This document shows, piece by piece, positions 25,491 through 34,371 of a stretch of DNA of 64,000 bases (position 1 is the stretch's first letter; every line of letters starts with the position of its first letter). Under the pieces are notes generated by a model. It made no database searches. It was not told the DNA's origin and saw only the letters and a list, made by a program, of their open reading frames with translations. The position numbers were made by a program, and so were the translations under genes. This DNA comes from Candidatus Jettenia sp. (GTDB taxonomy: Bacteria; Planctomycetota; Brocadiia; Brocadiales; Brocadiaceae), in the NCBI GenBank assembly GCA_021650895.1, contig CP091278.1:2199659-2263658 (forward strand), read 5' to 3'.

Positions 25491-25595
25491 TGAGCATAGT
25501 ATTTCTGGTAAAGGGTCAAATAGGAACAGTATTGTTTATGCTGTTCTTAAGCTATATCAGGGCTATACCAAACCTTGTCTTCTCTCGTGGTAAAA

Positions 25596-27665
25596 ATGAA
25601 TAAATCGATTTTTATCGCAGGTATTCTTTGTTTCTTAAGCCAATCGCTATTTTATCCCTTACAAAAGGTCATTTCTCAACCCATAGACAAACCGCCAACC
25701 ATCGACTCAAACACCAATAATCTTGTAAATCCTGTCTCTTTTAACTTTAAAGACGTTTTCAATCAATTTGGCGATAATGCAGAACGGCTTTATCAACACT
25801 ATGGCATCTTCGCCCTCGAATTTTTAAAAGAATATAAAATAGAGGGACTTGCCCTTTTGGAAAAACACGGCGCGGAAATGACAAATCTGTACCCACTTAT
25901 CAATTACCGGGATATCTTCCGCTTATACAGCAATCCGGATAACAACAAAAGTAATCTCCATATATTCTCACCCGAAACCATCGCCACATTTTACACAACC
26001 TTTGGAGATGAAGGGATAAAATATGTTGCCAATAACCCTGAAAATTTCTTTCTTATCTATGAAGATAAAGAAAAAGGTATTGAGTTCATCAATCTTGCCA
26101 ATGAAAAGGGCGATATTGTATTTCCCCTGATACGAAAGCACGGCATCGCCTTTGCAAAACTCTATGATAAAGATGTGTTGGATATCGTCATTAAATTTCA
26201 AGAGGACGGCCTTTTGGCCATAAAAGAATATGGAGACAAGGCAAAGGTTTTATTCAACCTTTTTGTCAATGATGATATCTTTTATCAGGTAATAAAAACG
26301 TACGGGCATAAACAAACGATTCCCATCATCTACCTCTTCTATGATAATAAAGATTTTAACAGCCAAATTTACAACTATTTGAAGACGACAAGCGCCTATG
26401 GATGGGTTTCATACTGGTGGTATGGCATTGAAACATCTGCGGTAGATGCTCAAAGTGATGCAGCAATAAGGCGTGAAAATGCACAACGGGCCATTCACCT
26501 CATCTTTGAATTGGGAAATGATTTTATTGACCGTTTTGAGATCCTCGATATCAATAATGTCAAGGAAGAAGCCGTTACCACGATTACCAATAAATTAAGA
26601 AACTTCTTTATCTCCGATATTGAGCGGGTAAGTCGGAAAAGGATCCGGCAGGAAGATATTACTTTTCAGGATAAATTGTTTGCAGGGCTAGACATCCTGG
26701 GATTTGTTCCTATTGGTAGCGGTATATCTAAAGTGGCAAAGCTTGCGGCAAAAGGAGCACGGTTTGCCAGGACCACAAAAGGTTTTCGGGGTCTCATTCA
26801 TCTTACAGAAGATTTTGTTAAAACGTATGGAGATGATGCCGTTTCGTTTGTTGCAAAATACGGAGATGATGGCATAAGGGTACTGAAGGCAACCGATGGT
26901 AAAATTCTCAAACTATCGCAGCAATATGGGGATGACCCTGTTCGATATCTTGCGAAATATGGCCCAAATGCAGGAAATGTGATTGAAAAATATGGTGATG
27001 AAGTACTGCTTCTTGCACGTCAATATGGTGAAGATGCCGTAAAATACACCATGCTTTACGGTGATGACGGCCTCAGGGTAATTCGGAAATATGGTAAAGA
27101 TGTTGTACTTTTGAGTACTATTTACGGAGATGATGTCATTAAGCTAGCAGCTTTCTATGGTGATGATATTATTCCCTATGTATCAAAATATGGATCAAGC
27201 GGTGTCAAAGTTATGGGAAGATATGGAAACGATGTAATGCTGTTGGCAAAAAAGCACGGAGATGATGTTATTAAATATGTCGGTATGTATGGTGATGACG
27301 GGATCAAACTGGCAAGAAAAGGCAAGGCAGGTCTATTGGTAATGCGATTCATGCCGCCAAAGGTATTTTCGAAATGTATAAAGTTTGTCAAATATGGTCT
27401 TATTGCAACGATCCTCTTTACGTTTGCCACGCATCCTATTGCATTTCTGTCAGGCCTGATAAAGGCCCTTTCCTGGTTATTTGGTACCAATCCGGTAGTT
27501 ATAGCAACTGTTTTAGGTCTTGTAGTCATTTTCTTACTTATAAGATTTCTGAAAAAATTTAAAATCATTCTCAAACCTTTTTTCATATTCCTTTCTCTCT
27601 TCAGAAGCCTTAGAATGGTAACAAGGCCTTTGTGGAACCATAGAGATACGGAGGCACAAAATTAG
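25596..27665 (+). CDS. membrane-anchored protein with 11-residue YGDD repeats
   Basis: 689 residues from the ATG at 25596 (a TTG seven codons earlier is possible). Signal peptide about 1-28. An N-terminal half carries degenerate copies of the same repeat (FGDNAERLYQHYG, FGDEGIKYVAN, KHGIAFAKLYD). A middle region (about 265-400) is unlike the repeats. Fifteen contiguous 11-residue repeats lie at 411-575 with consensus YGDD-x-h-x-x-h-x-K (h hydrophobic). Two C-terminal TM segments (about 597-650) and a basic tail follow. No known family is recognised. The regular period suggests a solenoid or hendecad helical array on the periplasmic side. Confidence 0.75.
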   Translation: MNKSIFIAGILCFLSQSLFYPLQKVISQPIDKPPTIDSNTNNLVNPVSFNFKDVFNQFGDNAERLYQHYGIFALEFLKEYKIEGLALLEKHGAEMTNLYPLINYRDIFRLYSNPDNNKSNLHIFSPETIATFYTTFGDEGIKYVANNPENFFLIYEDKEKGIEFINLANEKGDIVFPLIRKHGIAFAKLYDKDVLDIVIKFQEDGLLAIKEYGDKAKVLFNLFVNDDIFYQVIKTYGHKQTIPIIYLFYDNKDFNSQIYNYLKTTSAYGWVSYWWYGIETSAVDAQSDAAIRRENAQRAIHLIFELGNDFIDRFEILDINNVKEEAVTTITNKLRNFFISDIERVSRKRIRQEDITFQDKLFAGLDILGFVPIGSGISKVAKLAAKGARFARTTKGFRGLIHLTEDFVKTYGDDAVSFVAKYGDDGIRVLKATDGKILKLSQQYGDDPVRYLAKYGPNAGNVIEKYGDEVLLLARQYGEDAVKYTMLYGDDGLRVIRKYGKDVVLLSTIYGDDVIKLAAFYGDDIIPYVSKYGSSGVKVMGRYGNDVMLLAKKHGDDVIKYVGMYGDDGIKLARKGKAGLLVMRFMPPKVFSKCIKFVKYGLIATILFTFATHPIAFLSGLIKALSWLFGTNPVVIATVLGLVVIFLLIRFLKKFKIILKPFFIFLSLFRSLRMVTRPLWNHRDTEAQN
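26826..27320 (+). repeat. fifteen tandem 33-bp coding repeats
   Basis: Each unit encodes 11 residues starting Tyr-Gly-Asp-Asp or a close variant (YGPN, YGKD, YGSS, YGND, HGDD, TDGK). The period is exact from first to last unit with no insertion. The DNA units have diverged, so the amplification is old and held at the protein level. Confidence 0.92.
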
Positions 27666-29261: not shown

Positions 29262-29475
29262 AACTTCCTTAAGATGTAGGGCGAGGCTTTAGCCTTGCTC
29301 CCGCCACTTGAACGTACATGGGAGAGAGCAACCCTAAAGGGTTGCCCTACGGAATTGAAATCCTTGTACATTTAATTAGGCCTTCGTCGACTTTTTATAA
29401 CACCGATGTAGGGGCAGGTTTTAAACCTGCCCCAACAACAAAACATTGAAATTCCTAAACATTTTAAACTAAACC
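29262..29475. repeat. two adjacent GTAGGGC-type repeat units
   Basis: Unit one has GTAGGGCGAGGCTTTAGCC and the inverted GGGTTGCCCTAC, ending GAAATCCTTGTACATT. Unit two starts TAGGCCTTCGTCGACTTTT, has a GGGGCAGGTTT/AAACCTGCCCC core, and ends TTGAAATTCCTAAACATT. Confidence 0.85.
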
Positions 29476-29885: not shown

Positions 29886-32800
29886 TCATGTTTTACAGGT
29901 AAAGATAGAAAACAAAAAAACAGACGTATGCAAAGTTTTGAGAAAAATCGAGATGAGCAAAAATCTGGGTAATTCCATTAAAACAAGGATTGAAACTACC
30001 AATCCCTTCATCTTTTCCCTTGCATATTCCACAGTCTCGCCACGAGGGTTAAAGATACCCAGCTTGCCACGCTCCTTGATAATTCTCTTTGTCTTTGCGT
30101 AGATTCCGACATCATCTATCGTTATATCATATTGCTTCATAAGCTTGGTAATCTTCGCATCAAACTCATGGATATAATTCTCTATCTCAGAATCAATATA
30201 CTGCATCTCCTCCAGGTCAAACCGTGCCTGCCTGGCAATAGCCTCGTGTTCCCCATGCTCCAGCTTCCTGATCTGTTTCAGGTTGGCATGATTCTGGTCT
30301 ATAAGATGTGTCAGGATTGTATCGGCTACGCTCTCAGGCTCAATCTTATTCCGTTCATCCATAGCCTTTCGTTCCTCACGGCCTCTCTGGAATGCCTGAT
30401 AGTCAAGGTCAATGCGATGTTGGATAATCTTACCTTTATCCTTCATACGGCCAAGAATCTCATCATACACCCCCTTTACCTCTGGCTTTCTCTTCATATA
30501 AGCAAGGAATGATTTATAATATTTCGGCGCAACTTCTTTCAATAGTTTCGGATTATTAAGGAGCACACTGCCTGCATCTGCATATAATTCTTCATTTAAG
30601 TATCGGTACTTCGTGTATCTCTCGTCTGCCTGCTCATCAAACGGCTTCCATTTCTGGGTCAAGGCCTTCAATTCCGCAAGAATCTCTTCACGGGTAATAA
30701 GGCCTCGCCTCTCAATCTCTCGCTGGATAAACTTCTTATAGGTCTCCTGGTATAGCTCTTTCCTCTTTTCTGCATTGGCAGGATATTTCGACTTGGCAAA
30801 CTGAGCTGCAGCTTGAGCTATCTTTCCCCTTTCTTTACCTGTGATAATTCTTGAAGGTTCGGTAGGAATCTCATCAATCATAGACTTGAGATACTTCTTT
30901 AACGATGCAATATGCCCTAAGATATTCCCCCGCTTTGCAGACTCCGGTAAATGGTCTATCAGATGAAACAACTCATGAGCCAACACCTTATTTGCAAGGG
31001 TAGGATCCTTGCGGTATGCAATCAGATCAACCTTCCCGGTCTTGCGATTGTATTCCTTCCTGAACACCAGCATGTTTTCAGGCAGTTGGGATTCCTCTTT
31101 TACCGTTTCCTGAAACTCCTCAAATGCCTCATCAGCCTTTTTCCTGCTTACCGATCTTTCGGAAATCCGCTCACCTATAGCTATATCAGCTCTGAGTGAT
31201 ATCTTTCCCTTGCCTGGGCTGAATCTCCCCATTGCGTTCTCAAGATACCTTTTCACTTCTGGAAACTCGCCGTTATTAATCCTCTCTGCAATCTCCACAA
31301 TTTCAGGAAGCTCCCAGATGGGTGGATTGTCTTGTGCATATCCGCCTGTGTCAGCATTTTTTGGAGGAGAAGACTTTTTTTCAGGTGTAACAAATTTACT
31401 TCCATCGTTTTTAGTTGCATCTTTGAGTAAATCTGTTATACTTATTTTAGAAACCCCTATTGGGCGCCCACGACTTGATGGTGAATTGCCTTCGAGTGCG
31501 TGAGCATTGACAGTAGGGGTTTCTAATTGAATAGTCTCCAAAGAATAAAATTTCTTCCCAATTTTCTCATCTGTATACTCCTTAACTGTTAATTTCACAC
31601 GGAAAAGTGTATCCCTAATTGCTAGCGGTGCGTAAAATCTATGAATAAATTTTATACGATAATCTCCATATCTGTCGGGATATGACTCTGCAAGAACAGC
31701 ATTCTTTATTAAATCTGGTAATACAACTACCGATTGCATATCCGTTAGCTTTACACCTCCACCCGATAATTTATCAACACTATCACCACTAACTTTTAAA
31801 TTCCACTTTGTATCATTATTGAGATATTCCTTACCTAAAAAGCGTTTTGCATAGTTCTTTATAACATTCCTAAATTCCCATATTTTTTGTGTTGTGCTTA
31901 TTTCGTTGCCTGTGATATGTATAATTGGAACGTCTGGTTTTGAGAGCAAATCTTGCTCTTGACTATAGCCTCCCATATCAGCATTGTGTGGAGGCTTTTT
32001 GCTTTTAGGTTGTAAGTCAGGATAGTCTTTTAATACTTCCGGTGGTACTGGTTTGTTTTGGGAGATAGCTTTTCCAACCGATTCCCTATGTTCAAACCAA
32101 TCTGATTCCCCAATAGCTACACGGATTTCATCCAATTTTTCCAACACATCAGATATCGTTCCATATCCTTCATATCGGGCAAAAACCTTCTCGCCCTCCA
32201 CCCATGCAAAGAAATTCCTATCAGCCATAATTTCGTTTTTAAAGTTGTCTGTTTCATCAGTAAAATCAAACACAACGTCTCTAATAGTGGATTTGCTCGT
32301 AATTGGCGAAACTGTTTTTGTTGCATATTTCCTCCTATATTCTTGTAAAGTCATCTGCCAGGGTTCTTTTTGTGTGGATTGTTCATTGACAGATTTATCT
32401 TGTTGTGATAAACTTTTATCAGATAAGCCTTGAATGGGAATTCCCTCCTTGGGCAATTGTAGCCCTCTGGACTGGAACCATTTGAGGCTTTTTTGTTTGT
32501 TCATATAGCGCAGCAACCCTTTTTTAATCCAATTCACAAAATGTGAATCATGCTCTCTTGGATGAATACTTGCAATGTCATTTACAACATGGCGGCCTTC
32601 CTTTTTTGACAAATGTATTGCCACAACTATTGTTTTTCCGTTGTGGATAAGTTCAGTCATAAGAACTAAGCTATTTTTCTGAGTGGCAGAATCAAACACC
32701 ATAATAGGATTATGTATTTGTTGTGGTATTTGTTTTAATAATTTAATTGGAATACCATGTTTCCCGCCTTTTGCTTCTGGATAAACAACCTTTTTTAATA

Positions 32801-33170
32801 CATCTTGTTTTATAGTAATTGGTAATTGCTGAGCACCTAAGTTTATTAAAACATCCGGTGTCGATCCTACCGTTATTTCCTTATGTGTTTGTAACTTTCT
32901 ATTTTGCCAATCGTCTATTTGTTTTTCAAATGCATCAGTTTCGGATTTAATCTTTTTTTGTTTCGTATCCTGGCTATATCCCCCCGTATCCGCATATTTA
33001 CCCTGAGACTGCGGAGCTTTAACACCTTTTAACTGTTCCTCTATCGTTAGTTTTTTACTGTCTCGTAAGAGTTTGTGCTGTCTTTCATCCTGGAGTAGCT
33101 TCCTGATCTTCTCCCACCTTTTTAGTTTCGTAGGTGATTTGGAATCAAAGGAATAGCCTATAGTATCCAA
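29886..33170 (-). CDS. fragment of a phage/ICE-type large polyvalent protein (MuF- and LPD-like domains, HExxH domain)
   Basis: 1094-codon frame that looks truncated at both ends. A phage MuF C-terminal-like domain (about 95-250: HGIPIKLLKQIP, VAIHLSKKEGRHVVNDIASI) comes first. A region of unknown type (about 275-390) and an LPD3-like domain (about 400-600: GDYRIKFIHRFYAPL, KFYSLETIQLE) follow. Then comes a long helical domain with H732-E-L-F-H736 and E861 in EELYADAG, probably a metallopeptidase-like fold. The modules are separated by the repeated linker AD(T/M)GGY(S/A)Q, at residues 60, 397 and 606. The start is a TTG inside a MITE end, and the last about 40 residues are hydrophobic translation of a CRISPR-like repeat and what follows. 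Probably a mobile-element relic; domain names are from memory of family patterns. Confidence 0.6.
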   Translation of the reverse strand: MDTIGYSFDSKSPTKLKRWEKIRKLLQDERQHKLLRDSKKLTIEEQLKGVKAPQSQGKYADTGGYSQDTKQKKIKSETDAFEKQIDDWQNRKLQTHKEITVGSTPDVLINLGAQQLPITIKQDVLKKVVYPEAKGGKHGIPIKLLKQIPQQIHNPIMVFDSATQKNSLVLMTELIHNGKTIVVAIHLSKKEGRHVVNDIASIHPREHDSHFVNWIKKGLLRYMNKQKSLKWFQSRGLQLPKEGIPIQGLSDKSLSQQDKSVNEQSTQKEPWQMTLQEYRRKYATKTVSPITSKSTIRDVVFDFTDETDNFKNEIMADRNFFAWVEGEKVFARYEGYGTISDVLEKLDEIRVAIGESDWFEHRESVGKAISQNKPVPPEVLKDYPDLQPKSKKPPHNADMGGYSQEQDLLSKPDVPIIHITGNEISTTQKIWEFRNVIKNYAKRFLGKEYLNNDTKWNLKVSGDSVDKLSGGGVKLTDMQSVVVLPDLIKNAVLAESYPDRYGDYRIKFIHRFYAPLAIRDTLFRVKLTVKEYTDEKIGKKFYSLETIQLETPTVNAHALEGNSPSSRGRPIGVSKISITDLLKDATKNDGSKFVTPEKKSSPPKNADTGGYAQDNPPIWELPEIVEIAERINNGEFPEVKRYLENAMGRFSPGKGKISLRADIAIGERISERSVSRKKADEAFEEFQETVKEESQLPENMLVFRKEYNRKTGKVDLIAYRKDPTLANKVLAHELFHLIDHLPESAKRGNILGHIASLKKYLKSMIDEIPTEPSRIITGKERGKIAQAAAQFAKSKYPANAEKRKELYQETYKKFIQREIERRGLITREEILAELKALTQKWKPFDEQADERYTKYRYLNEELYADAGSVLLNNPKLLKEVAPKYYKSFLAYMKRKPEVKGVYDEILGRMKDKGKIIQHRIDLDYQAFQRGREERKAMDERNKIEPESVADTILTHLIDQNHANLKQIRKLEHGEHEAIARQARFDLEEMQYIDSEIENYIHEFDAKITKLMKQYDITIDDVGIYAKTKRIIKERGKLGIFNPRGETVEYAREKMKGLVVSILVLMELPRFLLISIFLKTLHTSVFLFSIFTCKT
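29969..29996 (-). repeat. solitary CRISPR-repeat-like sequence
   Basis: A 28-base sequence that on the minus strand starts GTTTCAATCC, continues TTGTTTTAATGG and ends AATTAC. The GTTTCAATCC...  start (ATTGAAAC on the other strand) and length are typical of type I/III CRISPR repeats. Only one copy is present in the window and no cas gene is nearby, so this is a resemblance and not an array. It lies exactly where the polyvalent protein loses its domain character. Confidence 0.35.
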
Positions 33171-33301
33171 CAGATTAAACCGAACAGCACATAATGAAAC
33201 TAGACAAAATAAGCCAGGATTTCATTACACCATCACGGACAAACAAGTTTGTCCGTGCCACCCTGTCTAAAATACTGTTCGGTTTCATCTATTGAGTACT
33301 A
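33161..33301. mobile_element. TA-flanked MITE (copy 2, 141 bp)
   Basis: The ends TAGTATCCAACAGATTAAAC and, inverted, TAGTACTCAATAGATGAAAC both continue CGAACAG. TA flanks both sides (33159-33160, 33302-33303). Inside is the palindrome ACGGACAAACAAGTTTGTCC. Same family as 27917-28142, with a different filling. The open frame of the polyvalent protein begins within its left end, so the insertion probably removed that gene's original 5' part. Confidence 0.85.
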
Positions 33302-33329
33302 TAATTCTTAAAAATATACAGAAAACGCT

Positions 33330-33779: not shown

Positions 33780-34371
33780 CCAGGGCGTCCTCGTTATAAT
33801 GATTAACGATTGAAACCAGACAGCATATGACAGATATGAAGTTTTGTAAACCATATATTCTCCAGTATAGCGATCCATCTTTACCATAGAAATACTCGGA
33901 GAGATACAAGATTTTGCAATGGTACAGACGCCAGATTCTGGAGACGCAAGATTTTGCGTCTCTACTCTCATTTTCCTACCCCGTAGAGATGCCATGATTA
34001 TAGCCAAAAAGAAAGAAAAGGATTGTGAACCACGAAGGGGTGACATGGGATACCTGCGTTGAGATATCATCCCTTCGGGATTTGATTGTGGGCGTATTTT
34101 ATCTAGAATCATTTCACCCCTTCGGGGTTAAATGCGGTGTGTTCGGTCTCATACAGAGGGTACCATAATCTACAAAACCGGTTTCCTGGTCAGTACACAC
34201 TTACCGCACTTGCATGGGTATTACTATTTAACCATTATGTGCGTAAGAACCGGAAGAGTAAATCTATACCTATACAACAATAGTAAATTACCCTGTAAAT
34301 TCTAAGAATTGTATGTATAATATTGAGTCTATAGTATTTCTTTTTACATAAACTTTTTATTGTGTAACCCT
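33780..34371. other. intergenic region with short palindromes
   Basis: No gene supported. GAGACGCAAGATTTTGCGTC (about 33939-33958) is a member of the GAGACGCAA palindrome family. The stretch ATCATCCCTTCGGGATTTG and the related TTTCACCCCTTCGGGGTT (about 34066-34125) are hairpin repeats. TTCGGTCTCATACAGAGGGTAC near 34140 resembles the end of the pst duplication (TTCGGTTTCATACAGGGTAC). Confidence 0.5.

What the first reader, a model, noticed from the sequence alone, without database searches (positions are those of the whole stretch)
29886..33170. Orphan phage-type polyvalent protein whose domains are joined by a repeated AD(T/M)GGY(S/A)Q linker
Three near-identical 8-residue boxes at residues 60, 397 and 606 stand exactly between different domains (MuF-like, unknown, LPD3-like, HExxH). 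This suggests a modular protein assembled by recombination at, or processed at, a fixed boundary box. Nothing else phage-like surrounds it. I know of no named motif with this sequence.
Basis: partly seen in the sequence, partly recalled or inferred. Interest (0 to 1): 0.72.

Follow-up and report, generated by a model that had tools for sequence, protein, structure and literature searches.

The report
Phage multi-domain protein with boundary boxes
A leftover piece of a giant phage protein, stranded where a sister species keeps a CRISPR defence locus, carries the same 8-residue tag before each of its modules; the tag also sits before the built-in protease in other phages, which makes it a candidate cut or docking site.

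Summary
ORF 29886-33170(-) has ADTGGYSQ, ADMGGYSQ and ADTGGYAQ at residues 60, 397 and 606, the only three copies in the 3.8-Mb genome. They precede MuF_C (Pfam 2e-28), LPD3 (2e-17) and an HExxH metallopeptidase (MPTase) module. The box is not private to this protein: A[DSNAE]xGx[YF] precedes the homologous MPTase in 17 of 70 giant virion proteins from viral contigs (about 2 expected), mostly 73-93 aa before HExxH. Boxes 1 and 2 are extra copies, in predicted disordered linkers, where other phage polyvalent proteins carry [YF]S[RL] boxes. Copies differ mostly at synonymous sites, so conservation is at the peptide level. Codon GC3 jumps from 0.28 to 0.48 at box 3 (changepoint residue 617, range 603-639), marking a module seam. 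The ORF is a relic: its TTG start lies in a 145-bp MITE, and its C-terminus stops against one CRISPR repeat where a sister species has a cas operon and 15-repeat array. Best reading: a fragment of a known kind (polyvalent protein) with a border motif I found nowhere described, most likely an MPTase recognition or processing site. That function is inferred, not shown.

The parts
29886..33170 (-). ORF of 1094 codons (TTG start), fragment of a giant phage polyvalent protein
   Evidence: homology to giants L053-L145
32970..32993 (-). box 1, ADTGGYSQ (residues 60-67), before MuF_C
   Evidence: in or at the edge of a pLDDT<50 linker, model residues 40-66
32487..32765 (-). MuF_C domain (residues 136-228), PBECR-type nuclease fold family
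   Evidence: Pfam PF18819, E 2e-28
32115..32273 (-). small alpha/beta element (residues 300-352), unnamed
   Evidence: AlphaFold model, pLDDT about 64-72; no Pfam match
31959..31982 (-). box 2, ADMGGYSQ (residues 397-404), before LPD3
   Evidence: in pLDDT<50 linker 356-414
31545..31874 (-). LPD3 domain (residues 433-542)
   Evidence: Pfam PF18798, E 2.1e-17
31332..31355 (-). box 3, ADTGGYAQ (residues 606-613), before the MPTase; codon-composition seam
   Evidence: homologous box in 17 of 70 giants; GC3 changepoint 617, range 603-639
30006..31307 (-). MPTase module and helical region (residues 622-1055); HELFH at 732-736 = 30963-30977
   Evidence: alignment A10 with 29 viral relatives, invariant H, E, H, D; model pLDDT 80
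29968..29995 (+). lone CRISPR repeat remnant, 28 of 36 nt, read through by the ORF's last codons
   Evidence: 15 identical repeats in sister species G002 at the same site; one in G001
33159..33303 (.). 145-bp MITE with 29-bp terminal inverted repeats; holds the TTG start codon
   Evidence: inverted repeat I1; many genomic copies at 80-98%

Best explanation
The ORF is a decayed fragment of a giant phage virion polyvalent protein (box, MuF_C, small alpha/beta element, box, LPD3, box, MPTase plus helical region). The box is a short linear motif, roughly A[D/S]xGx[Y/F][S/A], that marks the N-terminal border of the MPTase module in this phage protein family. In this lineage modules were added upstream of the MPTase, each with its own copy of the box. 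The most likely function in the living phage is recognition by the embedded MPTase, so that modules are released as separate effectors. Shown: domains, homology and conservation of box 3, peptide-level conservation of the copies, composition seam at box 3, predicted disorder around boxes 1 and 2, truncation at both ends. Inferred: the accretion history and MPTase recognition or processing. In this genome the fragment is probably non-functional.
For: Box 3 homologues in front of the MPTase in 17 of 70 giants against about 2 expected. Boxes 1 and 2 directly before MuF_C and LPD3, at positions where other MuF_C/LPD3 proteins have [YF]S[RL] boxes. Synonymous divergence of the three copies. GC3 seam at box 3. 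Boxes 1 and 2 in or at low-confidence linkers. A possible second multi-copy case, L092, with a box before a radical SAM domain. MPTase processing of polyvalent proteins was proposed independently in PMC5512222.
Against: No proteolysis evidence of any kind. The box is missing before the MPTase in most of the 70 giants, and usually single where present, so a universal cleavage code is excluded. Box 3 is moderately ordered in the model (pLDDT 60-68, two-residue strand) and might be a structural cap. The regular expression was widened after seeing the alignment. Recurrence of the pre-MPTase peptide is clearly significant only in the window protein.
Confidence: 0.42

Rival explanations
1. Docking or packaging tag: each box copy binds a capsid, portal or ejection partner, or organises the giant inside the virion, and is not cut.
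For: Several giants carry other repeated boxes near their N-terminus as well as internally (FDPSTAVL, LFDDLPK, KHGGRPA), which suits a tag better than a cut site.
Against: The A[D/S]xGx[Y/F] box keeps a near-constant distance to the MPTase, pointing to the MPTase itself. No other protein in the same loci carries the boxes tested.
Confidence: 0.27
2. Structural cap: the box is the first packed element of the MPTase fold, and boxes 1 and 2 are analogous N-caps of MuF_C and LPD3 or copies without function.
For: Model confidence rises from about 36-40 to 60-68 at box 3, with a short strand there. Near-constant spacing to HExxH in most relatives.
Against: Boxes 1 and 2 fall in or at pLDDT<50 linkers. 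The same peptide before three unrelated folds is hard to explain as a cap. Most relatives with the MPTase lack it.
Confidence: 0.16
3. Pure assembly scar: the box is a by-product of cassette insertion by homologous or site-specific recombination at a repeated sequence, with no role in the protein.
For: Composition seam at box 3; turnover of sequence upstream of the box in related giants.
Against: Copies are 67-74% identical as DNA yet nearly identical as peptide. In the close pair L055/L057 the seam lies some 50-80 aa upstream of the box.
Confidence: 0.12

Closest known systems
Phage-type polyvalent proteins with MuF_C/PBECR, LPD and zincin MPTase domains (Iyer et al. 2017, PMC5512222)
   Same: MuF_C, LPD3 and an HExxH MPTase in one chain; processing by the MPTase proposed in that paper
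   Different: Truncated, outside any prophage; repeated border box, which a search of that paper's text did not show
MPTase giants of viral contigs L055, L057, L059, L072, L075, L088, L092
   Same: Homologous MPTase plus helical region and ADxGGY box before it
   Different: Box single (L092 possibly two); different upstream modules, such as Eco57I-type methylase and SNF2 helicase in L055/L059; continue several hundred residues past the point where the window ORF ends
MuF_C/LPD3 polyvalent proteins of gammaproteobacterial phages (L158, L161, L033, Stx phage protein L028)
   Same: MuF_C, and LPD3 in L158, preceded by a short [YF]S box at the place of boxes 1 and 2
   Different: Box reads mostly [IV]R[YF]S[RL] or QYSRS, not ADxGGYSQ; L158, L161, L028 and L033 end in LPD38, not in this MPTase module

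Membership tests
Phage-type polyvalent protein | Several domains of disparate activity in one chain, drawn from the polyvalent set | tested here: met
   MuF_C and LPD3 over Pfam cut-offs, HExxH MPTase homologous to viral giants
Phage-type polyvalent protein | Encoded with virion or packaging genes of a phage, or in a conjugative element | tested here: not met
   Flanking genes are chromosomal, rest of the giant absent from the genome. Relatives are in viral contigs, e.g. L072 beside apparent tail and lysis genes. The ORF is filed as a fragment of such a protein, not as a working member
Phage-type polyvalent protein | Intact gene with start and full C-terminus | tested here: not met
   TTG inside a MITE; C-terminus ends at a CRISPR repeat where relatives continue
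Zincin MPTase of polyvalent proteins | HExxH plus conserved downstream glutamate | tested here: met
   HExxHxxD invariant, conserved E[LM][YF]A[DE] downstream in A10; assignment of the third ligand is inferred
Zincin MPTase of polyvalent proteins | Proteolytic activity on its own chain | not testable with these tools
   Needs biochemistry

The most novel reading that the evidence does not exclude
A[D/S]xGx[Y/F][S/A] is the recognition or cleavage signal of the MPTase in a family of phage polyvalent proteins, and accreting modules acquire a copy so that one built-in protease can release them all: a bacteriophage counterpart of viral polyprotein cleavage sites, with other lineages using other private border boxes.
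Probability: 0.33. Interest if true: 0.78.

Novelty: new variant of a known kind. Interest (0 to 1): 0.52.

Why it matters
Processing of polyvalent proteins by their own metallopeptidase was proposed in 2017 without a general cleavage signal that I could find. A conserved box just before the protease, repeated before other domains in one lineage, gives a concrete peptide to test by mass spectrometry or mutation. It also suggests that border boxes could be used to parse these giants into modules.

Tried and rejected
Exact-box scans: 22 viral hits to ADTGGYxQ, none evidently polyvalent, a number of the order of chance; 0 viral and 18 genome hits to the extended pattern, of which only the identical Brocadia contig lies in a polyvalent protein. 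The identical copy in G032 was rejected as independent evidence. MuF_C alignment A1 was too diverged for a collection scan. The mixed full-length alignment A8 was discarded because MuF_C and LPD3 rows landed on the C-terminus. PDB fold search of the MPTase module gave nothing; BFVD gave one unnamed match at 8.6e-4. NCBIfam no match; PDB sequence search nothing usable. The claim that giants in general repeat their pre-MPTase peptide upstream was tested and not supported: 6 of 61 at p<=0.05, 3 expected. The box as a tag shared by several proteins of one phage was not seen. Spacers of the sister CRISPR array match neither the fragment nor, convincingly, the giants. Literature searches found no description of a border box.

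Full report
OBSERVATION. ORF 29886-33170(-) encodes 1094 aa from a TTG. The pattern ADxGGYxQ occurs three times in the 3.82-Mb genome, all in this ORF, at residues 60, 397 and 606. The similarity of the copies is beyond chance: best 12-mer self-match 53, maximum 40 in 200 shuffles. Boxes 2 and 3 share a longer context, PPxNADxGGYxQ[D/E]. Pfam gives MuF_C at 136-228 and LPD3 at 433-542; PHROG 616 and 18222 cover the same parts. HExxH is at 732.

RELATIVES. tblastn finds MuF_C in Stx-converting and other gammaproteobacterial phages, LPD3 in WC36-2 and CF418P1, and the HExxH plus helical part in Pelagibacter phage Baldr. Scans of IMG/VR with the HExxH part gave 16 and then 77 loci, most encoding giants of about 1,500-4,300 aa. 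Upstream of the MPTase first helix (VEFPEILRIAK in L055, [11 protein letters not shown] here), L055/L057/L059 read ADVGGYS[N/D], L072 (the best-scoring relative) ADTGGYD, L088 ADVGGYAD, L092 ADMGGYAE, L056 ASVGDFSN, L063 ASIGDYAE, L097 ASAGGFAE. Over 70 non-redundant giants, 17 have A[DSNAE]xGx[YF] in the 180 aa before HExxH; about 2 are expected. Most are at 73-93 aa; L075 is at 168, and the window protein, which has an insert, at 126. The regular expression was loosened after looking at the alignment, so the enrichment is somewhat optimistic; still, every strict DxGGY in 159,156 aa falls at such a place, apart from boxes 1 and 2 here and one copy in L092.

EXTRA COPIES. Box 1 precedes MuF_C and box 2 precedes LPD3. 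L092 has a possible second copy, NIDIGGYVE near residue 632, before a radical SAM domain at 685-844. In other MuF_C proteins the homologous spot holds [YF]S boxes: L158 has FSRSE before PBECR1, RYSLSEDP before MuF_C, RFSRKAP at the start of PBECR5 and LFSRRP before LPD3. In six proteins 8 of 23 [YF]S[RLKV] sites lie within 80 aa upstream of a Pfam domain, 2.2 expected, p = 8e-4 (L033 and L161 are close relatives, so the true p is larger). Self-comparison found other repeated private boxes: GLTPEV x4 in L094, QYLP x4 in L144, KHGGRPA x4 in L112, FDPSTAVL x3 or more in seven giants, LFDDLPK x3 in L122. In L122 and L144 a copy precedes a weak ART-PolyVal match. None recurs in other ORFs of the same loci. 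A stricter test, whether the pre-MPTase peptide recurs upstream, is clearly positive only for the window protein.

PEPTIDE LEVEL AND SEAM. Pairs of boxes share 18-20 of 27 nt and differ by 3-6 synonymous and 1-3 non-synonymous codons. GC3 is 0.42 for residues 5-59, 0.28 for 60-605 and 0.48 for 606-1049; the best changepoint is 617 with 603-639 within 2 log-likelihood units, LLR 21 against a permutation maximum of 8. The MPTase part and the MuF_C-LPD3 part thus seem to have had different histories and meet at box 3. An insert-like model (60-605 different from both ends) is slightly better, but the 5' contrast is weak (p = 0.04). Between relatives similarity fades at or above the box; in the close pair L055/L057 the seam is some 50-80 aa upstream of it.

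STRUCTURE. Residues 1-430, shallow alignment, pLDDT 60: boxes 1 and 2 fall in or overlap segments with pLDDT < 50 (40-66 and 356-414); MuF_C is well predicted; a small alpha/beta element sits at 300-352. Residues 578-1050: pLDDT 80, pTM 0.72; box 3 is in blocks of mean pLDDT 60 and 68 with a two-residue strand. The box is not part of one folded repeat domain, though box 3 may touch the MPTase.

LOCUS. The fragment is a relic. Its TTG lies inside a 145-bp MITE with 29-bp terminal inverted repeats, present in many copies. Reading past the TA-flanked MITE, an in-frame TAA lies two codons upstream of the insertion site (sequence), so the 5' end was probably lost before the MITE came. Homology to giants runs to residue 1055-1057, about 30000-30008 in the window. 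Directly next to it, at 29968-29995, is a lone CRISPR repeat (28 of 36 nt). In a sister species (G002, flanks 95% identical) the same site holds a cas operon (type I inferred from its ORFs; no family search was run) and 15 such repeats. G001 also keeps one repeat, with its leader end. The rest of the giant was not found in the genome with one relative as query.

MECHANISM. Iyer et al. (PMC5512222) proposed that MPTases process polyvalent proteins into units and cite the cleavage of P1 DdrB. A conserved peptide in the linker before the protease, copied before other modules and kept at the peptide level, is what a recognition or cleavage site would look like. A docking or packaging tag explains the same facts nearly as well. 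No step of proteolysis is shown here.

VERDICT. A known kind of protein in an unusual place, with a border box for which I found no description in the papers searched. Interest is moderate, mainly because it makes the processing hypothesis testable.

Noticed in passing
29968-30008; sister locus L177 13297-14328: The phage-derived coding sequence directly abuts the 3' end of a lone CRISPR repeat, where a spacer would begin, at a site that holds a cas operon and 15-repeat array in sister species G002. Recombination through a spacer, aberrant acquisition or a chance breakpoint are all open; chance alone is not negligible.
   Followed up: partly
33159-33303: 145-bp MITE with 29-bp inverted repeats and apparent TA target duplication; many copies in this genome and its relatives at about 80-98% identity.
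   Followed up: partly
33795-34167 and 29270-29463: Two further dispersed repeat families flank the locus, with dozens of copies in this genome and its congeners.
   Followed up: no
L103, L106, L107, L109, L111, L113, L120, L112, L122, L094, L097, L144: Other giant virion proteins carry their own short repeated boxes (FDPSTAVL, KHGGRPA, LFDDLPK, GLTPEV, YDQFK, QYLP), some at the very N-terminus, confined to the giant within the loci examined.
   Followed up: partly
L004 / L045: A 5,717-bp contig binned as Candidatus Brocadia sp. MAG_8 is identical to the window along its whole length, chromosomal flanks included; probably a misbinned contig.
   Followed up: yes
25575-27665: 696-aa ORF with many repeats of the type YGDDxxxYxxKYGDDGxxV and no Pfam match.
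   Followed up: no
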